Source: a virus. From it: 64,000 nt of DNA. Under the pieces are notes generated by a model that was given only the letters and a program-made list of their open reading frames with translations, did no database searches and had not been told where the DNA came from. The translations under genes and the position numbers were made by a program. The stretch is from positions 1-64,000 of the IMG/VR virus record IMGVR_UViG_3300017971_000190. One strand, written 5' to 3'. Positions within the stretch are counted from its first letter, which is position 1. Each line of letters starts with the position of its first letter. Positions 3,369 through 62,166 of this stretch are shown here, piece after piece.

Positions 3369-3372
3369 ATCT

Positions 3373-3444
3373 GGCCCCATCGTTCAATGGTTAGGACACA
3401 GGATTTTCATTCCTGAGATCGGGTTTCGACTACCCGTGGGGTCA
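3373..3444 (+). tRNA. tRNA-Glu (TTC)
   Basis: This is a full cloverleaf: acceptor GGCCCCA/TGGGGTC, D-arm with GG, anticodon loop TTTTCAT with anticodon TTC, and T-arm CGGGT-TTCGACT-ACCCG, discriminator A, 72 nt. CCA is not encoded, so host nucleotidyl transferase must add it. Confidence 0.95.
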
Positions 3445-3474
3445 ATAAACTATTAAAAGAAAGGTCATACTACA

Positions 3475-3663
3475 ATGGTGGAAAAGGAAAACAGTTTCTA
3501 CAAAGAACAATTTTCTATTTTGCAAAGGCGTCTTCGTGGTTCCATAGAAGAAGCAAAGAAGGAAGGAGACACGAAGAGAGAGATTGCTCTTCTGAGGGTA
3601 GGTTGTGACGTTGCGAACATTTTGAAGGGTGTGAACATAAATTACAACCCTCCTGGTTACTAA
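3475..3663 (+). CDS. Hypothetical small charged protein (62 aa)
   Basis: Not recognised. It is a Lys/Glu-rich, probably alpha-helical small protein with one cysteine and a hydrophobic C-terminal end (NYNPPGY). The start is chosen at the ATG after AAAGAAAGG. It lies between tRNA-Glu and tRNA-Met and ends 7 bp before the latter, so mRNA and tRNA precursors share a transcript. Confidence 0.7.
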   Translation: MVEKENSFYKEQFSILQRRLRGSIEEAKKEGDTKREIALLRVGCDVANILKGVNINYNPPGY

Positions 3664-3670
3664 AAGTTTA

Positions 3671-3743
3671 GGGCTCGTCGTCTAATTGGTAAGGCTCCAA
3701 GCTCATAACTTGGTCATTCGGGTTTCGATCACCCGCGAGCCCA
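3671..3743 (+). tRNA. tRNA-Met (CAT)
   Basis: Acceptor GGGCTCG/CGAGCCC is perfect; the anticodon arm is CCAAG-CTCATAA-CTTGG (anticodon CAT) and the T-arm CGGGT-TTCGATC-ACCCG. The paired G1-C72 end suggests an elongator Met, or an Ile tRNA whose C34 is lysidine-modified; sequence alone does not settle which. Confidence 0.93.
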
Positions 3744-3746
3744 CTA

Positions 3747-3826
3747 TGTTACTGACTACCTGAGACCGCAGCTCAAAGGTTAGTAGCAGAACACCTCAAT
3801 TAAGTGACGGTAGAACACTGAGGTGT
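3747..3826 (+). ncRNA. Hairpins upstream of the 162-nt RNA
   Basis: TGAG/CTCA around 3760-3775 is followed by a perfect 8-bp hairpin ACACCTCA (3791-3798) / TGAGGTGT (3819-3826). The latter abuts the terminal stem of the next RNA and may stack on it coaxially. Confidence 0.45.
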
Positions 3827-3999
3827 GTGCAAGCAGGTACTACCGGGAAACTATTTTCTACCCTGTAACCACGTAGTTCCGAGGAGCACAAAAGAATGAT
3901 CCACCTTTTGTCCCTACCTGGAACTTAGCGTAGTTTCCCGCGTCTTTGGCGAAAGCCGTACTGCGTTGAGGATCAAACCTGCTTGCACTTTTTCTTTTT
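3827..3999 (+). ncRNA. Highly structured 162-nt RNA
   Basis: A perfect 12-bp terminal stem joins 3827-3838 to 3977-3988. Nested inside are GGGAAACTA/TAGTTTCCC (3845-3853 with 3931-3939), AGTTCC/GGAACT (3875-3880 with 3920-3925) and ACAAAAG/CTTTTGT (3888-3911), plus a GNRA-capped hairpin GGC-GAAA-GCC (3948-3957). A T-rich tract (3989-4000) follows, so the closing stem may act as terminator. I recognise no family: it is not RNase P, tmRNA or 6S by any motif I can see. tRNA-Leu begins at 4001. Confidence 0.7.
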
Positions 4000-4000
4000 T

Positions 4001-4082
4001 GCCCACATGGTGGAACAGGTAGACACGCGAATTTTAGGTGTTCGTGGCTAACGCCGTGGGAGTTCGAGTCTCTCTGTGGGCA
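4001..4082 (+). tRNA. tRNA-Leu (TAG)
   Basis: Acceptor GCCCACA/TGTGGGC, D-arm TGGTGGAACAGGTAGACACGC typical of Leu split by its loop, anticodon arm CGAAT-TTTAGGT-GTTCG (anticodon TAG), a class II variable arm, and a T-arm with TTCGAGT. 82 nt, no encoded CCA. Confidence 0.93.
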
Positions 4083-4084
4083 CT

Positions 4085-4174
4085 AGGTCATTCTAATTTT
4101 AAGTCCTGGTAATGGTGCTAGGCAAACGTGACAAGCTTTCCATCCTTCACGTTCGAGAAAAGTTAGAATGACCT
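4085..4174 (+). ncRNA. 90-nt RNA closed by 12-bp stem
   Basis: AGGTCATTCTAA (4085-4096) pairs perfectly with TTAGAATGACCT (4163-4174). Inside is AACGTG/CACGTT (4125-4153), with a possible CCTGG/CTAGG arm, giving a three-way junction. It starts 3 nt after tRNA-Leu and ends 43 nt before the next gene, so it could be a processed small RNA or a leader of that gene. Confidence 0.6.
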
Positions 4175-4217
4175 TAAATTTGTTGGGAGTTTGAGCTAAA
4201 CAAAAGAGGTACTTAAA

Positions 4218-4550
4218 ATGATTTTCACCTATGAGATAAAACGTCACAGTGTGGATTTCCTTTTCGAGGACGGCAGCTTTCATTCAATAGTGGTGGGACA
4301 AGGGCCTGGTTACTGGTACCGAATCATTTCAAAATTGAGAGAGTTGGGAAAAGAGATAAATCCGGAAGACTTTGACCAGGGTATAGAACGTCTATACTAC
4401 GATTACGCCACCGAGGAACTGAGAGGAAAAACAGAAAAGCAGAAAGAATTGGGATACTTTACCTGTCCCCAGTGCAACGTGATTTATCCTTGTCGTTCTT
4501 TCAAATATCAAAATCCTTGCGACAACTGTCGTTATGTAAAAATTACCTAG
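4218..4550 (+). CDS. Zinc-ribbon hypothetical protein (110 aa)
   Basis: The N-terminal 80 residues are unrecognised. The C-terminus carries a zinc ribbon with C83-x2-C86 and C101-x2-C104 (plus C92), which probably binds one zinc ion. Such small phage zinc ribbons often contact nucleic acid or protein partners, but no function can be assigned. The ATG follows AAAAGAGG. The stop is immediately followed by a conserved folded RNA motif (4551). Confidence 0.75.
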   Translation: MIFTYEIKRHSVDFLFEDGSFHSIVVGQGPGYWYRIISKLRELGKEINPEDFDQGIERLYYDYATEELRGKTEKQKELGYFTCPQCNVIYPCRSFKYQNPCDNCRYVKIT

Positions 4551-4612
4551 TCACTTCGTGGTTAGGAGTGGGGCAATGGAATTGAGAAACCCCCTAGAGG
4601 TTATTGGGCAAA
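4551..4612 (+). ncRNA. Conserved 62-nt RNA motif, copy 1
   Basis: It begins with the CAC-TTC-GTG mini-hairpin followed by GGAGTGGGGCAnTGGnATT and ends with GGTTATTGGGCAAA. The same order of blocks recurs at 4888-4950 with different connecting sequence, which suggests a folded RNA under selection. Both copies precede a tRNA or tRNA-like element. Confidence 0.5.
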
Positions 4613-4639
4613 AAAGAAAGCAGGAAAGATAGATTAATA

Positions 4640-4700
4640 GTTCACATGGTAGTTTAGGTACCAGCGGGAAACCGTGTAGGTTCGAGTCCTACTGTGGGCA
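4640..4700 (+). ncRNA. Cloverleaf tRNA mimic without anticodon arm
   Basis: All parts pair: acceptor GTTCACA (4640-4646) / TGTGGGC (4693-4699), a D-like hairpin TGGTA-GTTTAGG-TACCA, a minimal hairpin CGG-GAAA-CCG with a GNRA tetraloop where the anticodon arm should be, and a perfect T-arm GTAGG-TTCGAGT-CCTAC. Discriminator A at 4700. Its 3' end resembles tRNA-Leu at 4001. At 61 nt it cannot decode; it may be a tRNA mimic or decoy, or a tRNA-Leu remnant. Confidence 0.55.
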
Positions 4701-4703
4701 CTA

Positions 4704-4874
4704 GTTGGTAGTTCTGGGAGACCTTGGTGAAACACTCCATGGGAACCCACGGTAAAAACGAGACGTGGTAGGTTGTGTAGGTAACTACAGAGCCCTTCTA
4801 TCTAGTTACTCCTTGAGGGTAACGGGGGTAGTCGGATCTTGTTTTTAGAAACAAGGCCCACCTGAACTACCAAC
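4704..4874 (+). ncRNA. Highly structured 171-nt RNA
   Basis: An 11-bp perfect terminal stem joins GTTGGTAGTTC (4704-4714) to GAACTACCAAC (4864-4874). Internal hairpins are CCACG/CGTGG (4747-4768), TGTAG-GTAA-CTACA with a GNRA loop (4776-4789), GTTAC/GTAAC (4805-4823) and CTTGTTT/AAACAAG (4838-4855). It resembles the RNA at 3827 in size and plan (long closing stem, GNRA hairpin) but not in sequence. Family unknown. Confidence 0.7.
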
Positions 4875-4887
4875 AACTTCTTCCTAA

Positions 4888-5056
4888 GCACTTCGTGTTT
4901 GGGAGTGGGGCACTGGCATTTTAAAGTCCAACTCCATGTGGTTAGGGCAAACCAGTTCAAGACTTGGGCCTTTTGGCTAGCCCAGATGTATTTCTGATTG
5001 CCGACAAGTTACAGGCTGGTTGATACCAATTACCACGAAAGAAAGAGCTAGCCACT
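4888..5056 (+). ncRNA. Conserved RNA motif, copy 2, and hairpins
   Basis: Positions 4888-4950 repeat the CACTTCGTG...GGAGTGGGGCA...GGTTAGGGCAAA motif of 4551. Downstream, TGGGC/GCCCA (about 4964-4985) and AACCAG/CTGGTT form further stems. The segment ends just before tRNA-Ser and contains no ORF. Confidence 0.5.
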
Positions 5057-5059
5057 ATG

Positions 5060-5144
5060 GGAAGGATGACCGAGCGGCTGAAGGTACACGCCTGCTAAGC
5101 GTGCGTAGGGAAACCTACCGAGGGTTCGAATCCCTCTCCTTCCG
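5060..5144 (+). tRNA. tRNA-Ser (GCT)
   Basis: Acceptor GGAAGGA/TCCTTCC, anticodon arm CACGC-CTGCTAA-GCGTG (GCT), long variable arm CGTAGG-GAAA-CCTACCG as expected for class II, T-arm GAGGG-TTCGAAT-CCCTC. Discriminator G, as in bacterial serine tRNAs. Confidence 0.95.
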
Positions 5145-5150
5145 ACGCAG

Positions 5151-5246
5151 TTGGCCCCGCTGCACATCCTATCGAGAATAATTACCACAGATGTGTGTAC
5201 ACAAAGATGCTAGGATCTTTATTTGTGGTGGTTATTCTAGGGGCAA
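5151..5246 (+). ncRNA. Long-hairpin RNA (96 nt)
   Basis: TTGGCCCC (5151-5158) pairs with GGGGCAA (5240-5246) with one bulge. An inner helix of AGAATAA+ACCACA (5175-5189) with TGTGGT+TTATTCT (5224-5238) is broken only by a TT/GG internal loop. It lies between tRNA-Ser and the tRNA-like element at 5249. Confidence 0.55.
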
Positions 5247-5248
5247 TT

Positions 5249-5378
5249 GGCAGAGTGGCGAAACGAAAAGAGGCCCATACTAGTTAACCTCTTTCTTTGG
5301 TAAACGCGCGGTAACTCCGTGATTGGTCAATCAGTTAACTGGTTCACTATCTTCCAGGTTCAAATCCTGGCTCTGTCA
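5249..5378 (+). tRNA. tRNA-like element with ~60-nt insertion
   Basis: Acceptor GGCAGAG (5249-5255) pairs with CTCTGTC (5371-5377), and the perfect T-arm CCAGG-TTCAAAT-CCTGG (5354-5370) is in its correct place, discriminator A. The intervening stretch is about 98 nt rather than 41 and contains hairpins AAAGAGG/CCTCTTT, CGG/CCG and GATT-GGTC-AATC. It is far too short for a group I intron. No anticodon can be assigned. Confidence 0.5.
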
Positions 5379-5461
5379 AGATGCTATCGCATACACTGCC
5401 TTCAAAAAGTGTATTGACAAATTAAAAAATGTTGTCACAAGACTACTAGGAGGTATTAATC

Positions 5462-5632
5462 ATGGAAAGACTTATTTATCGCTTTATTCCTAACGTTGAG
5501 ACCTTAATTGAGCAATACGAGTTGGAAGGTTTCGAGGTGCGGGGATACAGTGAGTACAGTTCTGACGGGATTCCTAGGGTGGCTGAGATGGTCAAGTGGG
5601 TTTCTGATAAACCGTCTCAAGAAAAGGAATGA
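5462..5632 (+). CDS. Hypothetical small protein (56 aa)
   Basis: Not recognised. This short soluble protein starts at an ATG preceded by the very strong ribosome binding site AGGAGGT. It lies between a tRNA-like element and tRNA-Pro. A TTGACA box is present at 5414 but no good -10 follows, so it is probably read with the RNA cluster. Confidence 0.75.
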   Translation: MERLIYRFIPNVETLIEQYELEGFEVRGYSEYSSDGIPRVAEMVKWVSDKPSQEKE

Positions 5633-5657
5633 TTTTTGATTTTCTTCTCTTTCTTTT

Positions 5658-5732
5658 CGGGGAATAACTCAGTCTGGTAGAGTGCCTGCTTTGGGAGCAG
5701 GAAGTTCGCAGGTTCGAATCCTGTTTCCCCGA
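5658..5732 (+). tRNA. tRNA-Pro (TGG)
   Basis: Acceptor CGGGGAA/TTCCCCG, D-arm with CTCAGTCTGGTAGAG, anticodon arm CCTGC-TTTGGGA-GCAGG (TGG), T-arm GCAGG-TTCGAAT-CCTGT. C1-G72 is the usual proline identity pair. No encoded CCA. Confidence 0.95.
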
Positions 5733-5735
5733 TTA

Positions 5736-5768
5736 AGTTTATTTTTCAAAGTACACGAAAAATAAACT
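5736..5768. terminator. Perfect 11-bp A/T hairpin
   Basis: AGTTTATTTTT (5736-5746) pairs with AAAAATAAACT (5758-5768). With A-runs on one arm and T-runs on the other it could terminate in either direction, though GC content is very low; it might instead separate tRNA-Pro from the next tRNA-like unit for processing. Confidence 0.45.
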
Positions 5769-5798
5769 ACCTCACTGGTACAGAGGTTAAAGTACTGT

Positions 5799-5959
5799 GG
5801 ACAAGTGTTGTGCAGAGGGTAGCACAGAGAGTAAGCTAACGAAAAGCGAAACCTGCCGTGCGAGAAGAGCAGGTCCACGGTGTAATCGGAATGCCTCTAG
5901 TGTGGTGCACCACAGCTAGTTTTAATGCCAATGAGAGGTTCGATTCCTCTCCTTGTCCA
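5799..5959 (+). tRNA. tRNA-like element with ~85-nt insertion
   Basis: Acceptor GGACAAG (5799-5805) pairs with CTTGTCC (5952-5958). The D-arm GTGC-AGAGGGTA-GCAC is normal and the T-arm GAGAGG-TTCGATT-CCTCTC is correctly placed (6 bp). Between them lie about 105 nt with hairpins ACCTGC/GCAGGT and GTGGTGCACCAC instead of a 17-nt anticodon arm. It may be a tRNA interrupted in the anticodon region or a larger tRNA-like RNA. Confidence 0.5.
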
Positions 5960-5961
5960 AA

Positions 5962-6205
5962 TGTTGGGTTGGTACTTTACCAACGACAACAGCTTTCTTC
6001 GGGAGCCCGGAAGAAAGGCTTAACCAGCGCCAGTGAGCTTCAATGGGTCGTGCACACACCGCGTTGAAGATGACTCTGGGGTAGTAGGAAGGTGCACAGA
6101 ACGGCAAACTAGGCTTTTCCTAGGTTGGCTTCTAGGCACCGATCCCTCCTTCAGTGGTGTGTGGGGCTTGGTTGTTCGTTCACACAGGGCTCAATTTTAA
6201 AAATT
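5962..6205 (+). ncRNA. Structured RNA between tRNA-like unit and gene
   Basis: Hairpins in series: TTGGT/ACCAA (5969-5983), a long GCTTTCTTC/GAAGAAAGGC arm (5992-6019), CTTCAA/TTGAAG (6038-6069), then GGTGC/GCACC (6091-6140) enclosing AACTAGG/CCTAGGTT (6107-6126). The overlapping reading frames here follow the hairpins and lack ribosome binding sites. Unknown function. Confidence 0.5.
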
Positions 6206-6219
6206 ATTAAAGGTGAAAA

Positions 6220-6417
6220 ATGAAGCTAACTAAAAAACAAGAAAAATTGGTAAAAGAGGTTATTGGAGACGGCACCGATTTTCCAAAATTTACAAACGAC
6301 CCTTATGTTAATCACAGAGTAGACATGCTTGTTTGTGACTGTCCACCTTGGGAGGAGTTGAGTAAGGAAGAGCAAGATTTGTATTTTGAGGAAGTAGAAG
6401 CTTCTAAAATGGAATAA
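6220..6417 (+). CDS. Hypothetical acidic protein (65 aa)
   Basis: Not recognised. The first 20 residues are Lys-rich, then the protein becomes acidic with a C-x-C pair in the middle and an EE-rich helical end. The ATG follows AAAGGTGA. It sits between folded RNA and tRNA-Gln (6439). Confidence 0.7.
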   Translation: MKLTKKQEKLVKEVIGDGTDFPKFTNDPYVNHRVDMLVCDCPPWEELSKEEQDLYFEEVEASKME

Positions 6418-6438
6418 TTATTAATAGTATTGTTTCTT

Positions 6439-6510
6439 TGAGGCGTAGGCAAACGGTAAGCCACGAATTTTTGGTGTTCGGCATTGGAGGTTCGAATCCT
6501 CCCGCCTCAA
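6439..6510 (+). tRNA. tRNA-Gln (TTG)
   Basis: Acceptor TGAGGCG/CGCCTCA, D-arm with AAACGG loop, anticodon arm CGAAT-TTTTGGT-GTTCG (TTG), T-arm GGAGG-TTCGAAT-CCTCC. U1-A72 at the end of the acceptor is typical of glutamine tRNAs. Confidence 0.94.
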
Positions 6511-6512
6511 AA

Positions 6513-6662
6513 ATGAAAAAAGAAAAACCTTTGAAGGATTTACTGCCGAATCCATGTTGTTGCAGTTTTCCCATGGAACCATTGAAAGTAACAAAACCAC
6601 TTAGAGAAAAATTGTGGAAGTGTCTCAAGTGTGGTAAGTTGATCTATAAATACAAAAACTAG
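6513..6662 (+). CDS. Small zinc-ribbon protein (49 aa)
   Basis: A CCC triplet at residues 15-17 and a C-x2-CG pair near residue 38 suggest a small zinc-binding protein. The chosen ATG lies 2 nt after the tRNA-Gln discriminator base, with no ribosome binding site; tRNA 3'-end processing would leave an essentially leaderless mRNA. Reading the frame further upstream would run through the tRNA, so this start is preferred. Confidence 0.5.
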   Translation: MKKEKPLKDLLPNPCCCSFPMEPLKVTKPLREKLWKCLKCGKLIYKYKN

Positions 6663-6665
6663 TGC

Positions 6666-6755
6666 GGAGTGTATAGTGTTTAAATGGCAACACGGCTAGT
6701 GGCTAACGGGTCATACCTGCCAGGCAAAAGTGGGTTCAAATCCTGCAACACTCCA
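6666..6755 (+). tRNA. tRNA-like element, 90 nt, anticodon unclear
   Basis: Acceptor GGAGTGT (6666-6672) pairs with ACACTCC (6748-6754). The D-arm GTGTT-TAAATGGC-AACAC and T-arm GTGGG-TTCAAAT-CCTGC are present, but one extra A separates T-stem and acceptor. The middle contains TCATACC and CTGCCAG (possible CAT or GCC anticodons) without a proper 5-bp stem. Confidence 0.45.
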
Positions 6756-6824
6756 TATAATGTTTAGCGAGAGACAAGCAGTTGGGCTCTCGTGGCGACT
6801 TTGTAGAGGGTGTACAATTTTTCT

Positions 6825-6897
6825 GGGCGATTAACTCAGTTGGCAGAGTGCAATCTTTACGCGGTTGAAGTCACAGGTTCAAACCCTGTATCGCCCA
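6825..6897 (+). tRNA. tRNA-Val (TAC)
   Basis: Acceptor GGGCGAT/ATCGCCC, D-arm CTCAGTTGGCAGAG, anticodon arm CAATC-TTTACGC-GGTTG (TAC), T-arm ACAGG-TTCAAAC-CCTGT, discriminator A. A CGAGAG/CTCTCG hairpin lies just upstream (6770-6792). Confidence 0.95.
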
Positions 6898-6905
6898 AAA
6901 AGAAG

Positions 6906-6934
6906 TTGACTTTACCACTACTCTGTGTTAGCCT
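6906..6934 (+). promoter_or_regulatory. sigma70-type promoter for small RNA
   Basis: TTGACT (6906-6911), 17-bp spacer, TAGCCT (6929-6934) preceded by TGT, an extended -10. Transcription would start at about 6941, immediately before a folded, terminator-ended RNA with no ORF. Confidence 0.6.
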
Positions 6935-6940
6935 TTTCTT

Positions 6941-7053
6941 AATCCGTGAGAGATCAGGCTCAACTGCTCTCACGGGGTTGTCAACGGGGTGGGCCAATCC
7001 CCTGACGGCGGGAGCTGCGTTTCCTTTTGGAAGCAGTCTCCCGTTTTAATTTT
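6941..7053 (+). ncRNA. Stand-alone small RNA (~110 nt)
   Basis: Between its own promoter (6906) and terminator (7009-7053) lie a hairpin CCGTGAGAG/CTCTCACGG and a GGGG/CCCC arm. No start codon with a ribosome binding site is inside. This is the best-delimited small RNA of the region. It lies upstream of the gene at 7073 and could instead be an attenuated leader of that gene. Confidence 0.6.
7009..7053 (+). terminator. Intrinsic terminator
   Basis: CGGGAGCTGC (7009-7018) pairs with GCAG-t-CTCCCG (7033-7043), followed by TTTTAATTTT. It closes the small RNA and separates the RNA region from the following gene block. Confidence 0.8.
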
Positions 7054-7072
7054 AGAAAGGAAACAAAGCACC

Positions 7073-7273
7073 ATGGTAGAAGAAAAAGAAACCTACGAAG
7101 CTATCAATTTTGGTTGGGACGGTGATGATTTTGTAACCGAAGATGTTACAGGCAAAATTCGTCGCTATCACGGTGCCAAAATTACCGACGTTAAGCGAGA
7201 GTGTTCTGTGGAAGTTCAAGACGGTAAAGTGATTGGACACTTTTCGTTTCAATTACCGAAAAAGAAAGGCTAA
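7073..7273 (+). CDS. Hypothetical protein (66 aa)
   Basis: Not recognised. It is a small acidic protein rich in beta-forming residues, ending in a basic KKKG tail. The ATG follows GAAAGGAAACA; longer upstream frames cross the terminator and are rejected. It ends 4 bp before the next gene, suggesting one operon. Confidence 0.7.
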   Translation: MVEEKETYEAINFGWDGDDFVTEDVTGKIRRYHGAKITDVKRECSVEVQDGKVIGHFSFQLPKKKG

Positions 7274-7277
7274 GAGA

Positions 7278-7565
7278 ATGACTATGGTAAAAGAACACGA
7301 ACTTAAGTATGGGGTAGATGGTTGCCTCTTAACCTGGCAAAACCCTTTTCCTGAAGAAGTAACCTGTGCTTGTTGTGGAAAAGAAGGTGCACGTTTAGCT
7401 TTTGTTCTACAAGAATCAGGCAAAAAGGAGCACGCTTGTAATTTATATCAAAACGATCCGGATGGAGAGGGATTTTGGGTGCACGATTCAGCTGCTTTTG
7501 CAGTTTATTTGTGCAGAGATATTAATTGCCCTGAAAAAGCTACCGCTAAGTGGAATCAAGCTTAA
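7278..7565 (+). CDS. Cys-rich zinc-binding hypothetical protein (95 aa)
   Basis: It contains a C30-x-C32-C33 cluster and C79/C84 near the end, spaced as a split zinc site. No known domain. The start at 7278 is chosen because the longer frame overlaps the preceding gene; a second ATG follows 2 codons later. It ends 9 bp before tRNA-Lys. Confidence 0.7.
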   Translation: MTMVKEHELKYGVDGCLLTWQNPFPEEVTCACCGKEGARLAFVLQESGKKEHACNLYQNDPDGEGFWVHDSAAFAVYLCRDINCPEKATAKWNQA

Positions 7566-7574
7566 AATATTTTT

Positions 7575-7647
7575 GGGTCCTTAGCTCAGCTGGTAGAGCA
7601 CCGGACTTTTAATCCGTAGGTCTTCGGTTCAAACCCGAAAGGACTCA
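7575..7647 (+). tRNA. tRNA-Lys (TTT)
   Basis: Acceptor GGGTCCT/AGGACTC with one wobble, D-arm GCTC/GAGC, anticodon arm CGGAC-TTTTAAT-CCG.. (TTT), T-arm TCGGG-like TTCGG-TTCAAAC-CCGAA. Canonical 73 nt. It directly precedes the RNA ligase gene, which may repair cleaved tRNAs. Confidence 0.95.
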
Positions 7648-7762
7648 TTAGTTCACCCATCAGAATAGTAAGTTTTAAGGAGAAAGATCATGAAGAAGAT
7701 TGTGCCTTCAAATTGTTGTAAACAGAATCAAGTATTTAAACTTAAACGAAAGAAGAACTGTT

Positions 7763-8377
7763 TTGAAAACATACCCAAGTATGGTTTATCCTCCCTTTGG
7801 AGGATTGAAGGAGTACCTTCACACCTTTGCTAAGTTGGACGGCAGCAATCTCAGATTTGAATGGAGCAAGAAAAAAGGTTGGTACAAAGTTGGAACCCGG
7901 CATCGTCTTGTAGACGAAAGTGATTCTATTTTTGGAAAAGCTCCCCTTATTTTTCAAGAAACTTTGGCTGACCAGTGCGAGAAAATTTGTAGAGATAATC
8001 GTTGGCAGAGAGCTGTGATTTTCTGCGAGTACTATGGACCACAAAGCTTTGCTGGCCTGCATGAAATTGGAGGTACGATGACGCTAACGGTTATAGACGT
8101 AGCTCCTTACAAAAAAGGCATTTTACCACCTACTGATTTTCTAAAACTGTTTGGAGAATTAGGGCCGCATTACCTGGGATACTTGAAGTGGAATTTTAAT
8201 TTCATAAATCGAGTTCATCAGGGTTTAGAGCCTGAAGCTAGTTTTGAAGGAGTAGTTGGTAAAGCTAAAGGGAAAGGAAATACACTACTTCTCTACAAAA
8301 CCAAAACTCAAGCCTGGAAAGATGAAGTTAAAAAACGATACAGTAAGAAGGAAGCAGAAAAAATAATTCATAGCTAA
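7763..8377 (+). CDS. RNA ligase (nucleotidyltransferase superfamily)
   Basis: The N-terminus has a YPSM motif and then KLDGSN, the motif I nucleophile (K24), followed by a CEYYG element, EGVVGK (motif IV) and a KTK motif V, as in T4 Rnl2-type ATP-dependent RNA ligases. Such enzymes reseal broken RNA, classically tRNAs cut by host anticodon nucleases, and this gene follows tRNA-Lys. I prefer the TTG at 7763; a GTG at 7700 would add 21 unlike residues. A better ribosome binding site serves an ATG at 7690 in another frame (47 codons), so an initiation oddity or frameshift is possible. Confidence 0.85.
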   Translation: MKTYPSMVYPPFGGLKEYLHTFAKLDGSNLRFEWSKKKGWYKVGTRHRLVDESDSIFGKAPLIFQETLADQCEKICRDNRWQRAVIFCEYYGPQSFAGLHEIGGTMTLTVIDVAPYKKGILPPTDFLKLFGELGPHYLGYLKWNFNFINRVHQGLEPEASFEGVVGKAKGKGNTLLLYKTKTQAWKDEVKKRYSKKEAEKIIHS

Positions 8378-11037: not shown

Positions 11038-11238
11038 ATGGATGCAGATAAAACCAGCATATGTCATATCGAGTACGATGACGAAACCAACTCTTGGGTT
11101 TGTATTCATTGTAAAGATAAGTTTACAGAAGTTAGAAAGCCTCCCAAAACTACAGCGTTAGATATAGCTGTTCCTCTACTTGGAGCTGCTGCTGCTTTTT
11201 TCTTGATAATTGTAGTCCCAATTATCAGATTTAGATAA
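11038..11238 (+). CDS. Tail-anchored zinc/membrane protein (66 aa)
   Basis: The N-terminal half has C9 and a C22-x2-C25 pair (CIHCK); the C-terminal end is one strongly hydrophobic segment (about residues 44-63, LGAAAAFFLIIVV) followed by RFR. This predicts a protein with its Cys domain inside the cytoplasm and a C-terminal membrane anchor. ATG after GGTGAAGAG. Confidence 0.7.
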   Translation: MDADKTSICHIEYDDETNSWVCIHCKDKFTEVRKPPKTTALDIAVPLLGAAAAFFLIIVVPIIRFR

Positions 11239-11247
11239 TTTTTAAAG

Positions 11248-11276
11248 TTGACAACGCAAAGAAAATCTGCTAAATT
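11248..11276 (+). promoter_or_regulatory. sigma70-type promoter
   Basis: TTGACA (11248-11253), 17-bp spacer, TAAATT (11271-11276) preceded by TGC (extended -10). It drives the pair at 11304/11575, including the ADP-ribosyltransferase. Confidence 0.75.
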
Positions 11277-11303
11277 TTAGAAATCGAAAGGAAAGTGTGA
11301 CCC

Positions 11304-11627
11304 GTGTGTTATTTTCAGGACATTGCTGTAAAAAAAGTTGTAGTAGAAGTCATTTCCGAGCTGGTGGGAAAGCGTAAGCGCTTCACCGGTTGGGAAGTGA
11401 ATCAAAAATTACAAAACCGCAAAGGCTTTGCTCACCTTCCCCCACCCTGGCAGATCAGCTCCTATGTACGGGAACTGTTTAATGGGCATAACAGTGCTTT
11501 TTCAGGTTATGCCTGTTATCCAGTTGATGGAGGCCCCTTGCTCTATTTCCCAATTCCGTACTATGTGAGAAATCATGTCGAAAAAATCCAAAAAGAAATC
11601 CAAACGGAAGGCCAAACCGAAAAGTAA
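11304..11627 (+). CDS. Hypothetical protein (107 aa)
   Basis: GTG start after AAAGGAAAG. Residues 20-70 resemble a small winged-helix-like fold (GWEVNQKLQ, then SSYVRELF), and it ends in a charged coiled tail. The last 53 bp overlap the PARP-like gene in another frame, so the two are translationally coupled and perhaps partners, for example antidote or regulator of the transferase. That pairing is inference. Confidence 0.65.
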   Translation: MCYFQDIAVKKVVVEVISELVGKRKRFTGWEVNQKLQNRKGFAHLPPPWQISSYVRELFNGHNSAFSGYACYPVDGGPLLYFPIPYYVRNHVEKIQKEIQTEGQTEK

Positions 11628-12426
11628 CCCTTCTGTTTCGATGCCCAGTGTTCAGGAACTTTTTGGTTCCAGTTGTCGTTATCGCCTTAGCAGTTCTTTT
11701 CGTGGACCTCAATTAGAAGGTTACGAATTCTTATGTGCTTTCGAAAACAAAGTACACTCTTACCACACCCCCACAATGCAGAAGCTTGGCAATATTAAAC
11801 AAGCTTGGCATGGTACCAATAAGGCTGCACTTAAAAGCATTGCTGTGGATGGATTACTCACGCCTTTTCAGCGTCGAAAGCGAGATCGCTGGACTAGCAT
11901 ACACGGTATGTTTGGACCAGGAATTTATTTAGCTCCTAACATTGAAAAAGCGGCTATGTTCGCATGGCAGCATAAGCATTTGAAGTTTGTTCTTCAATGC
12001 TATGTTGCTTTGGGAAAACCTCATTTTGCTACTCAAACAGGAAACTATTACGAAACAGCTGAAATGGAAGACAAGCATAGTGTCATAGGTGGAAGAGGAT
12101 CACTGACTGGAGCTTGGGGTGGTAGACTCTTAAACGAAGAGTGGGTAATTTTCGATAATCAACAAGCTACTGTAGACATGGTACTCGTGTACAGATGCGT
12201 GGAAACTCCTAAGGCTACCCCATTTCGAGGCTCGATTGGACGACGATTTTATAACAGTAGTAGAGAACCACAAGGTGTTGTTCGTTACCACCCTTGCAAA
12301 CGAAATGGCAAGCTTTGTCGCAATGCTTTTGGCTCTGGTGGCTGTGTGGAAAAAGGTATAACTACTGGAGCGAGTGCCTTTTCAGATTACTGCAGAGATT
12401 ATCAAGTATCCTTGATTCACAAATAA
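11575..12426 (+). CDS. PARP-type ADP-ribosyltransferase (283 aa)
   Basis: The core (residues 75-207) matches the PARP catalytic fold: WHGT (H79), FGPGIYLA (Y118), an ALGK strand and NEEWVIFDNQQ, where E189 aligns with the PARP1 catalytic glutamate. The H-Y-E triad is thus intact, predicting transfer of ADP-ribose from NAD+. The first 18 residues are a Lys/Arg tail that may bind nucleic acid; the C-terminal 75 residues include several cysteines. Phages use ADP-ribosylation to remodel host transcription or counter defence (T4 Alt/Mod are other families). The target is unknown. Confidence 0.8.
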   Translation: MSKKSKKKSKRKAKPKSNPSVSMPSVQELFGSSCRYRLSSSFRGPQLEGYEFLCAFENKVHSYHTPTMQKLGNIKQAWHGTNKAALKSIAVDGLLTPFQRRKRDRWTSIHGMFGPGIYLAPNIEKAAMFAWQHKHLKFVLQCYVALGKPHFATQTGNYYETAEMEDKHSVIGGRGSLTGAWGGRLLNEEWVIFDNQQATVDMVLVYRCVETPKATPFRGSIGRRFYNSSREPQGVVRYHPCKRNGKLCRNAFGSGGCVEKGITTGASAFSDYCRDYQVSLIHK

Positions 12427-13801: not shown

Positions 13802-15319
13802 ATGTTGATTTTCAGAAGTTTTTTGCTCACCTTTTTCGTTTTCTTTTTGACTGCTTGTGGGGCTGGAAGTGGGGTCAGTAACGATATCCCTGACTCAGCG
13901 GTTGGAAATGATGCTGTTTCCAACAACAATAACAACAACGGAAACGAAAATACCAACAGCAACTCCAATTCAAATCCTGTTTGTGGTAATGGGAATATTG
14001 AGGAGGGGGAAATTTGTGATGATGGAGCTGCCAACAGCGATACGGAACCTAACGCCTGCCGAACTACTTGCACTCTACCTTCTTGCGGTGATGGTGTTGT
14101 TGATGACGACGAAGCCTGTGACGATTCGAACCTGGGTGGTTCTACTTGCGCCAGTGAGGGCTTCACAGCCGGTCTGCTAAGTTGCGCTTCGAGTTGCGAG
14201 TTGGATTTTACAAACTGTACAACTTGCGGTAACGGAGTAGCTGAAGGCTCTGACCCAGCGTGGCCGGGTTACGAGGTTTGTGACGGTACGGACCTTAGGA
14301 GTCTGAGCTGCACCGATTTTGGTCTCCCAGCTGGGGTATTGGCTTGTTCTGCGTGCACTTGGAACACCTCTGGTTGCGTCGGAGCGGCAACTTGTGGAAA
14401 CGGAACAGTGGAAGCGTGGGAAGGTTGTGACGACGGTAACACCACCCCTTGCGATGGTTGCAGCTCGACGTGTCAGGTAGAAGAGTGCGGTAACGGGGTG
14501 GTGGAGTGCTCGGAAACCTGTGACGATGCCAACAGTTCCAACGAAGATGCCTGTCTCAATATCTGCGTTCTCAATACTTGTGGAGATGGGTACATCAACG
14601 TTGGTGTTGAAACCTGTGATGACGGAAATAACAACGTCAACGACGCTTGTCCAGATGGACCAGCGGGTACTTGTCAAATTACCACTTGCGGTGATGGTTT
14701 CACTAATTTAAATACAGAGACTTGCGACGACGGCAACGGCAACAACGAAGATGCCTGTCCTGATGGTGTTGGCGGAACGTGCCTTGCCGCTTCTTGTGGA
14801 GATGGTTTTGTTCAGACGGGGGTTGAGAACTGCGATCCTGGTTTGGACCCTATCTGCAATGGTGATTGTACTGGTTCCTGTGGTGATGGAGTTTGGAACA
14901 GTACTTACGAGATTTGTGATCCGTCAGTATCTGGACATGAAATGTGTAATCCTGACTGTGCGGGTTATTGTGGAGATGGGATTTTGCGATCTCAGTGGGA
15001 AGACTGTGATCCTGGAATTTCTGGTGGTCCGCCATGTTTCTATCCTGAATGCACCTTGTCTGTTTGTGGTGATGGGATTTGTGATTGGAATAATGAGTCT
15101 CATAGTAGTTGTCCAGGAGATTGCCCTTGTAGTAATCCTACCGATACTTATTGTGGTGGACAGTGCTGGCCCCCAGCCAATGGCGAATACCCAACCTGTT
15201 GTTCTGATGGAATTGCAATGTACAACGATTTTCCGGGCGGTTATTATATTGTACATTGTGGTGACTGCTCGATCACCTGTAGTAGCACACAAGATTGTGT
15301 TTCTGGTCAGTGCGTTTAA
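13802..15319 (+). CDS. Cys-rich repeat lipoprotein (505 aa)
   Basis: The signal peptide (residues 1-18) ends in the lipobox LTAC with lipidated C19, followed by an Asn/Ser linker (about 35-60). Then come roughly eleven repeats of the form CGnGxxE...CDDGN, the DUF4215/Myxococcus cysteine-rich repeat. It should be exported and anchored as a surface lipoprotein with disulfide-bonded repeats. Such proteins are abundant in Myxococcota and relatives, so the gene was probably taken from the host; in a phage it might mask the cell surface against superinfection (inference). It has its own promoter. Confidence 0.8.
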
Positions 15320-17273: not shown

Positions 17274-17546
17274 ATGCAGACTAAATCCAAAGACGACGTT
17301 GTTTGGGAAGGTGGAATTAACGATGCTCACCATTGGTTACCTAATGGTTTGCATGTACGAATTACAGCAATCACTCTTCCTAGTGGTCCAAGTATCTTTA
17401 TTTGGGATGTGAGTGACCCCTTAATCCGGGCTCCAGTGGCAGCTAGTATTTACGAGTTTCAATTGGAGAACCACCCTAAAACTTTTGAGGTGGCTGCAAG
17501 TCAAGCTCTACACGCCGCTTCTAAAATCAAACCTTACGGGAGTTGA
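17274..17546 (+). CDS. Hypothetical protein (90 aa)
   Basis: Not recognised. Soluble, beta-rich N-terminal half and an Ala-rich helix at the C-terminus. ATG abuts the previous stop; its own stop overlaps the next start (TTGA). Confidence 0.65.
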   Translation: MQTKSKDDVVWEGGINDAHHWLPNGLHVRITAITLPSGPSIFIWDVSDPLIRAPVAASIYEFQLENHPKTFEVAASQALHAASKIKPYGS

Positions 17547-17761
17547 TCTTGCCTTATCAAAAACATCAACATAAGTGGACTTTTTTGAATGCCGCAGGAG
17601 CTAAAAAATTCTCCTGGTGCAAAGGATGTGGTTCATTGAGAGTAGAAACTTTGTTTGGAAAAGTTTCTTATCGTCTGAGCAATTCTTATAAAGCTTCACT
17701 GCCCAAAGTAGCTGATGGATTACCAACACAAGAGGAGAAAGAAACTGGTGCAGAAGATTAA
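17543..17761 (+). CDS. Zinc-ribbon-like hypothetical protein (72 aa)
   Basis: TTG start coupled to the previous stop. It has an H-x-H-K motif near the N-terminus and WCKGCG, which together could hold one zinc ion, then a basic Tyr/Ser region. Function unknown. Confidence 0.6.
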   Translation: MILPYQKHQHKWTFLNAAGAKKFSWCKGCGSLRVETLFGKVSYRLSNSYKASLPKVADGLPTQEEKETGAED

Positions 17762-17924
17762 AAAGAAAAGCGTGTGGTCTAAAAAAGGAGAGACTACTCC
17801 GTCTGTGCGTGTAAGTAGAATAAGAAAAGAAGAGATTTGTTTTTATCCCTACTTTGGTGGTGGGGCTGAACAAAAGCTAAACCGAGATCAATTTCTCCAT
17901 TTTTATGAGCTTTGTGAGGGTTAA
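17715..17924 (+). CDS. Hypothetical basic protein (69 aa)
   Basis: Very Lys/Arg-rich in the first half, so possibly nucleic-acid binding. The start is uncertain: ATG 17715 overlaps the previous gene by 47 bp, whereas GTG 17748 has AGGAG upstream and gives 58 residues. Overlaps the next gene at its end. Confidence 0.55.
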   Translation: MDYQHKRRKKLVQKIKKKSVWSKKGETTPSVRVSRIRKEEICFYPYFGGGAEQKLNRDQFLHFYELCEG

Positions 17925-18135
17925 CGTGGCTACTACTAAATTTACACACGAGGGAGATCTTCTCAACACAGTTTCTAGCCATGATTTGGTAATTGATACT
18001 GTTCGTTTACGAAAAGTTGGAGCCTGTTGGGTGGACGAAAAAGGTAGAAAGTTTGATTTAAAAACAGGCTATGATACTAAGCGTGCTTGGGGGTTGGTGA
18101 AGTTAGATTTGGCTTCGGTCAAAAAAATGAAATAA
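17905..18135 (+). CDS. Hypothetical protein (76 aa)
   Basis: Not recognised. Contains a GACWVDEKGRKFDLKTG block resembling a short beta-hairpin domain. The start may be ATG 17905 or GTG 17926, which follows GTGAGGGTT. The stop overlaps the next ATG (ATGA). Confidence 0.6.
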   Translation: MSFVRVNVATTKFTHEGDLLNTVSSHDLVIDTVRLRKVGACWVDEKGRKFDLKTGYDTKRAWGLVKLDLASVKKMK

Positions 18136-61132: not shown

Positions 61133-61510
61133 ATGACAAAGCCAATATCTATTTTGGTCGTTGATGATGACCAGAGTATGGCAGAATTGGCTTGTGAGAT
61201 CTTAAATGCCTCCAATTTTAAAACCACTTACGCAAAAAATGGAGTTATTGCTCTCGCTCTTTTATCGATATCAACGTCGTTTGATCTTGTGCTTACTGAT
61301 TTAGATATGCCGTATATTAACGGTATTGAATTGATAAAACAAATCAAAACAAGTTTTCCTCGTGTGAAAACCATTCTCATGACAGGTGGAAGTCACAAAG
61401 GTGTGCAAATTCCTGAGGACATTGATTATTTGGAAAAACCTTTCGACTTAGAAGGTCTTTTAAGTCGAGTCAATTTGGAATTAGAAAAAACAACAGGAGA
61501 AAAACCATGA
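61133..61510 (+). CDS. Stand-alone receiver (REC) domain protein (125 aa)
   Basis: A complete response-regulator receiver: D11-D12, phosphoacceptor D56 in LTDLDMP, T84 (MTGG) and K102 (EKPF). No output domain follows, as in CheY/Spo0F-type proteins. It could be phosphorylated by a host histidine kinase and divert signalling, for example motility or development. ATG 61133 is chosen over GTG 61124 inside the previous gene. Its stop overlaps the lipoprotein start (ATGA). Confidence 0.9.
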   Translation: MTKPISILVVDDDQSMAELACEILNASNFKTTYAKNGVIALALLSISTSFDLVLTDLDMPYINGIELIKQIKTSFPRVKTILMTGGSHKGVQIPEDIDYLEKPFDLEGLLSRVNLELEKTTGEKP

Positions 61511-62166
61511 AGCGGATTGCATCTTTAATTTTGGTAAGTTTATTTGTTTTATCTTTAGTGGGTTGTCCTACTCCAGATCCAGCAAATCCAAAGGCTAAGT
61601 ACCAGGCAGCTTTTACTACTATTGCTGTTGCTAAAGCTACCGTTACAGCTGCCTACGGCGTATGGAAGGGAGTAGAAGCAAACAAATACCAAGAGTGTAC
61701 AAAAAGGGTTTGTGTTAAACTTCACCCTGTTAAAACCAGCACTGAATTTAAAAGTTGTATGGCTACTGACCAGAGTGGTGTAGACGAGTTCAAAACTTGC
61801 TATGGGGACATGGGTAAGGCAAAAGCTATTATTGATAAAGCTGTTCCGCTTACGCTTTCTTTATTAGATGATACAAAAGACGCCATTGAATTTGCAGTAG
61901 AGTATGAGGTTGCTAAAGAGGCTAAGGAAGCGCAAAAAGATCCTGCTAAGCTTAAAGAATTTTGTGACAAGGCTTTTCCGGCTAAAACTGGAGATCAGTA
62001 TCAGCTTTGCTTGGATGGGAAAGATGTTAAAAAAGCAGACTGGAAAGGTTTTCTAGTAGCCCGCTGTTGTACTGTAGACAAAGCATTTGCCTTCATGCCT
62101 GATGCGTGGGCTAAGTATGTGGAGCCAATTCGAGTTTGGTTTAGAGCTTACGGTAATTGCAAGTAA
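61507..62166 (+). CDS. Lipoprotein (219 aa)
   Basis: The signal peptide ends in LVGC (lipobox, C20). The mature part is helical with eight further cysteines, probably disulfide-bonded in the periplasm or on the surface. No family recognised. Translational coupling to the REC gene suggests linked function, such as envelope remodelling or superinfection exclusion (inference). Confidence 0.75.
   Translation: MKRIASLILVSLFVLSLVGCPTPDPANPKAKYQAAFTTIAVAKATVTAAYGVWKGVEANKYQECTKRVCVKLHPVKTSTEFKSCMATDQSGVDEFKTCYGDMGKAKAIIDKAVPLTLSLLDDTKDAIEFAVEYEVAKEAKEAQKDPAKLKEFCDKAFPAKTGDQYQLCLDGKDVKKADWKGFLVARCCTVDKAFAFMPDAWAKYVEPIRVWFRAYGNCK

What the first reader, a model, noticed from the sequence alone, without database searches (positions are those of the whole stretch)
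11304..12426. PARP-type ADP-ribosyltransferase overlapped by a small gene
The H-Y-E triad is intact (H79, Y118, E189) and a basic tail precedes it. Eukaryote-like PARP domains are uncommon in phages. The upstream gene overlaps it by 53 bp under a strong promoter, which suggests a regulator or antidote.
Basis: partly seen in the sequence, partly recalled or inferred. Interest (0 to 1): 0.75.

Follow-up and report, generated by a model that had tools for sequence, protein, structure and literature searches.

The report
Phage two-gene unit with mini-PARP
A large bacterial virus carries a stripped-down version of the human-style PARP enzyme, and the small overlapping gene in front of it has stayed with it in a distantly related phage, which suggests that the two work together on a still unknown target.

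Summary
Window 11575-12426 encodes a 283-aa PARP-type ADP-ribosyltransferase (Pfam E 6e-13) with H79, Y118 and E189, a Lys/Arg-rich start and a 53-bp overlap with an upstream 107-aa ORF, U, in a 221,679-bp phage record.

Beyond the reading: a distantly related phage contig (G010) carries the same pair, PARP and U each about 39% identical, overlap 47 bp in the same phase, with different neighbours. So U-PARP is probably a unit, though only two members are known. U models as a winged-helix protein (pLDDT 75.7; fold matches weak). Neither PARP has a WGR match; 16 of 17 other phage/plasmid PARPs gathered do. Both have a four-Cys C-terminal extension.

Phage PARPs are in print (PMC4245714, PMC7824862, PMC9503650); the catalytic-only form with an overlapping partner was not found in the searches made. 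Best reading: a phage ADP-ribosyltransferase acting on a nucleic-acid-associated target, U a co-expressed regulator or adaptor. 'Antidote' is possible but untested; no activity, target or toxicity is shown.

The parts
11248..11276 (+). promoter-like site TTGACA-17-TAAATT with TG before the second hexamer, in front of U
   Evidence: 10 of 12 matches, intergenic; not above chance in number; no transcript data
11304..11627 (+). U: 107-aa predicted winged-helix protein, start GTG with a purine-rich stretch (about 11287-11295, by eye) upstream
   Evidence: homologue in G010 E 1.6e-20; AF2 model pLDDT 75.7, order H-H-H-E-E-H-H; no Pfam, PHROG, NCBIfam or PADLOC match at E <= 0.1
11575..11627 (+). 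53-bp overlap of U and PARP frames (47 bp, same phase, in G010)
11575..12426 (+). PARP-type ADP-ribosyltransferase, 283 aa, catalytic domain only
   Evidence: Pfam PF00644 6e-13; phrog_23333 9.3e-7; G010 homologue
11575..11625 (+). Lys/Arg-rich N-terminal tail, aa 1-17 (K4 S5 K7 K8 S9 K10 R11 identical in G010)
11779..12192 (+). ART/PARP catalytic domain match, aa 69-206
11809..11811 (+). H79 codon of the H-Y-E triad
11926..11928 (+). Y118 codon of the triad
12139..12141 (+). E189 codon of the triad
12211..12423 (+). C-terminal extension, aa 213-283, with H239, C241, C248, C257 and C273 identical in G010; possible metal site (inferred)
   Evidence: no Pfam match for aa 216-283; no other copy above threshold among the ORFs of the two records

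Best explanation
U-PARP is a conserved two-gene phage unit. Shown from sequence: U and the PARP overlap in the same phase in two distantly related phages with different neighbours; the PARP keeps the ART domain and the H-Y-E triad, has no recognisable WGR or PARP_reg domain, is very basic and ends in a four-Cys extension. Modelled: U is a winged helix. Inferred: the enzyme moves ADP-ribose from NAD+ to a nucleic acid or a nucleic-acid-bound protein during infection (host takeover, anti-defence, or repair of phage DNA), its tail and Cys extension standing in for the missing WGR as nucleic-acid contacts. U, encoded first and tied to the enzyme by the overlap, binds DNA and/or the enzyme and sets its dose or place. 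Rough odds: enzyme active on a macromolecule 0.75; nucleic-acid-associated target 0.5; U mainly an autoregulator 0.45, an adaptor 0.25, a direct inhibitor 0.2 (that last case is rival 1).
For: PARP domain and triad. Pair conserved with same-phase overlap. Six reciprocal-best ORFs lie at 5.6-21.5 kb of G010; of the five consecutive pairs among them only U-PARP is adjacent in both records, and the gene right after PARP in G010 lies 49 kb away in G000. No U homologue at E <= 1 among ORFs of the nine IMG/VR loci L018-L026 that hold full-length PARPs, so U goes with the short form in what was examined. U fold: fold-search lists rich in proteins that I know as winged-helix ones, such as PadR/LmrR (Foldseek E 0.036-0.06) and Fur/Zur (VIA Z 8.8 and 8.3, rmsd 6.6 and 3.4, 95 and 90 residues). 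PARP pI 9.9 and 10.1, net charge about +24 and +28. No WGR or PARP_reg match in either. The PARP is not beside the terminase-like gene, which lies at 181-183 kb of the record.
Against: Only two members of the family are known here, so each 'conserved' rests on one comparison. Adjacency in both records is not rare in itself: 12 of 42 consecutive reciprocal pairs show it, 9 in the 44-64 kb block and 2 at the left end of G010. No activity, target, expression or binding data. The Ser904- and Tyr907-equivalent positions differ from most other PARPs in the set, so NAD+ handling may be altered. U's fold rests on an AF2 model from two sequences; no match at E <= 0.001 in PDB or BFVD, several PadR rows have rmsd of 13-15, and Z around 8 can be a common arrangement. 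U is basic in G000 (pI 9.1) but slightly acidic in G010 (pI 6.3), odd for a DNA binder. No operator shared by the two phages was seen upstream of U.
Confidence: 0.5

Rival explanations
1. Type II-like toxin-antitoxin: the PARP is toxic to the host and U neutralises it by binding, while repressing the operon. It would serve superinfection exclusion or maintenance.
For: Order (small gene first), overlap and modelled DNA-binding fold match the usual layout of type II pairs (layout recalled). Phage ART toxin-antitoxin pairs are described, though as a small number (PMC9503650, section read).
Against: No toxicity or neutralisation data. What an addiction module would do for a large phage is unclear (inference). 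The U model is helical up to residue 105, though at pLDDT about 62 for the last block, without an evident disordered tail. No PADLOC match for either protein.
Confidence: 0.2
2. Writer-eraser system: the PARP marks a target and the DarG-like macrodomain protein of the same record (record 219005-219508, minus strand, outside the window) removes the mark.
For: Macro match in the record, 21.1 bits, 22 with its neighbours in the frame; DarG PADLOC model 4.1e-19, NCBIfam DarG 5.7e-20; solved 5m3i and 5m31 (named RNase III inhibitor and Appr-1-p processing protein; recalled as DarG-type) E 4e-10 and 8e-10, with an aligned FPxK lysine. Macro hits in 10 of 14 other PARP-bearing records at E <= 0.1, 7 of 14 over the cut-off.
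Against: The gene is about 207 kb away in the record's linear coordinates and on the other strand (about 13.5 kb if the ends join, which is not known). As a protein alone it scores 21.6 bits, just under the Pfam cut-off of 22, and 71.9 against a DarG cut-off of 250 in NCBIfam. G010, the only other record with the pair, has no match in its 105,713 bp, which may be a fragment. Macro domains occur in 56% of jumbo phages anyway (PMC9503650).
Confidence: 0.15
3. Inactive or binding-only PARP: the triad is kept but the altered nicotinamide pocket makes it an NAD+/ADP-ribose binder or decoy.
For: Ala at the Ser904 position in both, Phe/His at the Tyr907 position.
Against: Three of the 17 other PARPs also have Ala at the first position; H, Y, E and the lysine before the Ser position are kept in 19 of 19 sequences.
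Confidence: 0.12

Closest known systems
Phage and plasmid WGR-PARPs (Xanthomonas phage XacN1 BBA65562.1, Stenotrophomonas RAS14, Klebsiella 05F01 and FBKp34, Cellulophaga phi4:1; phrog_23333)
   Same: PF00644 catalytic domain, H-Y-E triad, carried by large phages
   Different: The 17 gathered are 383-553 aa and 16 of 17 have WGR by Pfam. The window PARP is 283 aa without it, 24-27% identical to five of them, with a basic tail and Cys extension. No U homologue at E <= 1 in the nine loci L018-L026; among phage records U's tblastn matches are at E 0.9 or worse
PARP4-type and tankyrase-type catalytic domains (eukaryotic)
   Same: Best matches of the two-sequence profile among solved structures, PARP4 E 5.1e-8
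   Different: Only the ART domain region matches; 283 aa leave no room for the partner domains of those proteins
DarTG and other ART toxin-antitoxin pairs
   Same: ART enzyme with a partner gene
   Different: No PADLOC match for the PARP; the partner is a modelled winged helix, and the macrodomain gene is not adjacent
T4 Alt/ModA/ModB
   Same: Phage transferases that modify host proteins (PMC9503650, section read)
   Different: Placed there in the R-S-E clade; this one has H-Y-E

Membership tests
PARP/ARTD catalytic family (PF00644) | Profile match above the curated cut-off | tested here: met
   49.2 bits vs 26.7; G010 31.1 bits
PARP/ARTD catalytic family (PF00644) | H-Y-E triad | tested here: met
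   H79, Y118, E189 aligned; H, Y, E in 19 of 19 sequences
PARP/ARTD catalytic family (PF00644) | Ser and Tyr of the nicotinamide pocket (PARP1 S904, Y907; recalled, common rather than strictly defining: 3 of 17 others lack the Ser) | tested here: not met
   Ala/Phe here, Ala/His in G010; Ser in 14 of 17 and Tyr in 17 of 17 others
PARP/ARTD catalytic family (PF00644) | NAD+-dependent transfer | not testable with these tools
   needs protein
WGR-PARP (phage/bacterial type) | WGR domain | tested here: not met
   no match; only about 50 aa before the ART domain
WGR-PARP (phage/bacterial type) | PARP_reg helical domain | tested here: not met
   no match and no room for it; 10 of 19 in the set match, and modelling finds helical domains where Pfam does not (PMC5966428, passages)
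Type II toxin-antitoxin | Two co-directional, overlapping genes kept together | tested here: met
   two records
Type II toxin-antitoxin | Antitoxin with DNA-binding fold | tested here: inconclusive
   modelled winged helix, pLDDT 75.7; weak fold matches
Type II toxin-antitoxin | Toxicity and neutralisation | not testable with these tools
   bench test
DarTG | DarT-type ART next to DarG macrodomain | tested here: not met
   PARP has no PADLOC match at E <= 1; the DarG-like gene is not adjacent

The most novel reading that the evidence does not exclude
U-PARP is the first of a class of catalytic-only phage PARPs whose DNA targeting has moved from a fused WGR domain to a separate, overlapping winged-helix partner plus basic and Cys-rich tails. 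It would be a two-component, nucleic-acid-directed ADP-ribosylation device that marks host or rival DNA, or RNA polymerase on DNA, during infection, with U both aiming and limiting it.
Probability: 0.2. Interest if true: 0.75.

Novelty: new variant of a known kind. Interest (0 to 1): 0.5.

Why it matters
Phage PARPs are named in surveys, but in the passages and sections that I read none is given a tested activity or target. A 283-aa catalytic-only member with a conserved partner would be a small, testable system: it can ask whether a PARP without its DNA sensor can be directed by a second protein, and which host or phage molecule is modified. If U is an inhibitor instead, it would be a new ART toxin-antitoxin type.

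Tried and rejected
Single-sequence scans for close relatives of PARP and U in IMG/VR and of PARP in GTDB contigs found none; a scan by the MFGPGIY pattern found the one informative relative. Further profile and pattern scans gave no third member: one search returned G010 again and two full-length PARPs, G010 alone, nothing. Records near the window's own may be hidden by the tool.

U paralogues among the record's ORFs: none above threshold. The C-terminal extension elsewhere in the two records: none. U against phage records gave only matches at E 0.9-9, not taken as relatives; the Erwinia Asesino match lies antisense to an annotated gene. The BFVD search with the U model gave a best E of 5.6e-3 to an uncharacterised phage protein; a phi4:1 protein is also listed (E 0.09), from a phage that has a PARP, and was not followed.

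The PARP structure model was poor (pLDDT 39) and was not used. PadR, Fur or Z-alpha membership of U is not claimed: matches are weak and the fold is common.

Operator search: a 9-bp inverted repeat (11204-11227) lies upstream of the promoter-like site; 7 of 300 mononucleotide shuffles reach that length. It lies inside the preceding ORF and has no counterpart in G010, so it gets little weight. The promoter as evidence: rejected beyond its position.

Macro co-occurrence as evidence of a writer-eraser pair: rejected, because the published base rate is high (PMC9503650). I ran no control set of large phages without PARP.

Full report
What is there. The window is bases 1-64000 of a 221,679-bp virus record. 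ORF 11575-12426 (+, 283 aa) matches Pfam PARP over aa 69-206 with 49.2 bits (cut-off 26.7) and phrog_23333 at 9.3e-7. It is the only PARP match in the record at E <= 10. U has no match in Pfam, PHROGs, PADLOC or NCBIfam at E <= 0.1.

The pair is conserved. A scan of IMG/VR with the back-translated motif MFGPGIY gave 7 stretches. Two hold full-length PARPs of contigs already found; one, L044 in a 105,713-bp contig called G010 here, was new and informative. It encodes a 273-aa PARP (phmmer 1.8e-56) and, just upstream, a U homologue (1.6e-20). MAFFT identities are 43% and 39%; BLAST gives 39.3% and 38.7%. The overlap is 47 bp in G010 and the PARP frame is shifted against U in the same sense in both. 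In G010 the listed U ORF begins upstream, but the similarity begins at an internal ATG ('MC'), so its true length is probably 106 aa. The two records share 43 reciprocal best ORF matches (at least one an antisense ORF inside a real gene), including a block around the terminase-like gene at 24-50% identity. So they are distant kin, not near copies. Of the 42 consecutive pairs of such matches, 12 are adjacent in both records: 9 in the 44-64 kb block, 2 at the left end, and U-PARP. Among the six matches at 5.6-21.5 kb of G010, U-PARP is the only adjacent pair of five, and the next gene in G010 has its match 49 kb away in G000. This is the main new evidence. It rests on one comparison, and further scans found no third member. 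U was also sought among ORFs of the nine loci L018-L026 with full-length PARPs and not found at E <= 1.

Architecture. I gathered 17 other PARPs from phage, plasmid and IMG/VR records: L002-L008, L018-L026 and Cellulophaga phi4:1 in L055. Not all known ones are in: one search lists 15 phage records, of which six are used. They are 383-553 aa. With the two U-PARPs, 19 of 19 match PARP, 16 of 19 match WGR and 10 of 19 match PARP_reg at E <= 0.01. The window and G010 proteins match neither WGR nor PARP_reg, so 16 of 17 others have WGR. The set came from searches seeded with such proteins and is not a random sample. The U-PARPs instead have a basic tail and a C-terminal extension with H239, C241, C248, C257 and C273 kept in both, and pI values of 9.9 and 10.1. 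A metal site is inferred, not shown. The triad is kept in 19 of 19; the position of PARP1 Ser904 is Ala in both U-PARPs and in 3 of 17 others; the position of Tyr907 is Phe or His in the U-PARPs and Tyr in 17 of 17 others (PARP1 numbering recalled). So activity is likely but not assured. Whether chains or single ADP-ribose units are added cannot be told. The AF2 model of the PARP failed (pLDDT 39).

U. With the two-sequence alignment, AF2 gave pLDDT 75.7, pTM 0.58 and the order helix-helix-helix-strand-strand-helix-helix. Foldseek has no match at E <= 0.001 in the PDB or BFVD. The PDB list opens with a clostridial transcriptional regulator (E 0.021), yeast Cdt1 C-terminal domain (0.028) and PadR (0.036), and goes on with LmrR, Fur and others that I know as winged-helix proteins; several of these rows have rmsd of 13-15. 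VIA-align puts Fur/Zur proteins first (Z 8.8, rmsd 6.6, 95 residues; Z 8.3, rmsd 3.4, 90 residues), with 6 of 999 chains at Z 8 or more. I take U as a probable winged-helix protein; DNA binding is not shown, and the charge differs between the two phages.

Context. The terminase-like protein (record 181133-183463, minus strand) matches 162 phage records, among them PaBG and Erwinia jumbo phages at 27-29% identity. The PARP lies in the left, plus-strand region of small ORFs, far from that gene, so packaging in the head is not suggested by position. A DarG-like macrodomain protein lies at 219005-219508 on the minus strand; alone it scores just under the Pfam macro cut-off. Of 14 other PARP-bearing records, 10 have a macro match at E <= 0.1 and 7 exceed the cut-off; the four without any are contigs of 24.6-52.2 kb. 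Macro domains are present in 56% of jumbo phages (PMC9503650, passages) and I ran no control set, so I draw no link. G010 has no match.

Promoter. The site at 11248-11276 is plausible by position only. In the record, 58 sites reach 10 of 12, 7 of them intergenic by a greedy ORF map, and mononucleotide shuffles give more sites, not fewer.

Mechanism. I favour an ADP-ribosyltransferase acting on nucleic acid or a protein bound to it, because the enzyme is extremely basic, has a Cys-rich tail and is tied to a modelled winged-helix protein. All of this is inference from make-up. The overlap suggests coupled translation, with U encoded first. U as autoregulator is the simplest role; adaptor and inhibitor are open. 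Timing is unknown. Host takeover, anti-defence and repair cannot be separated with these data.

Known work. PARP genes in Aeromonas phage Aeh1 and Cellulophaga phi4:1 were reported in PMC4245714 (passages). PMC7824862 notes PARPs in few jumbo phages, naming BBA65562.1 (passages), which is the XacN1 protein. PMC9503650 counts PART among the most frequent viral ART families, ARTs in over 40% of jumbo phages, and a small number of ART toxin-antitoxin pairs (passages, outline and two sections). PMC5966428 describes WGR architectures of bacterial PARPs (passages). For a phage PARP with a winged-helix or antitoxin partner I searched as follows: 0 papers; one each (the two just named); 2 papers, 1 listed; 6; 24, of which 15 listed. 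Apart from the four papers cited I saw the listings only. No such pair is in what I saw. The library holds only open-licence papers, so this is no proof of absence.

Verdict.

Noticed in passing
window 13802-15319 (+): 505-aa protein with a lipoprotein-like signal (by eye) and DUF4215 repeats (Pfam 4.8e-20, five stretches), unusual cargo for a phage.
   Followed up: partly
window 61507-62166 (+) and G010 17384-18070: Lipoprotein-like gene (by eye), 52% identical between the two phages; in G010 it directly follows the PARP, in G000 it is 49 kb away.
   Followed up: partly
L050:415-1233 (G010): DNA/RNA non-specific endonuclease (PF01223, 3.4e-41) with a lipoprotein-like start (by eye); could act against incoming phage DNA at the envelope.
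   Followed up: no
window 3372-7648: Eight plus-strand tRNA genes within 4.3 kb, followed at 7700-8377 by an ORF with a sub-threshold RNA ligase match (E 0.014).
   Followed up: no
record 219005-219508 (-), L009:1432-1935: Stand-alone DarG-like macrodomain protein, next to an ORF that looks RecA-like by eye; a candidate anti-DarT factor.
   Followed up: partly
L050:1393-1971 (G010): 192-aa ORF that by eye resembles another ART-fold protein; no Pfam match at E <= 0.1.
   Followed up: no
L003:1825-4946 (LR756511.1, 595 kb phage): A full-length PARP lies next to an ORF that looks like a DNA ligase by eye; phi4:1 has an annotated DNA ligase two genes from its PARP. Hints at DNA repair for the full-length type.
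   Followed up: no
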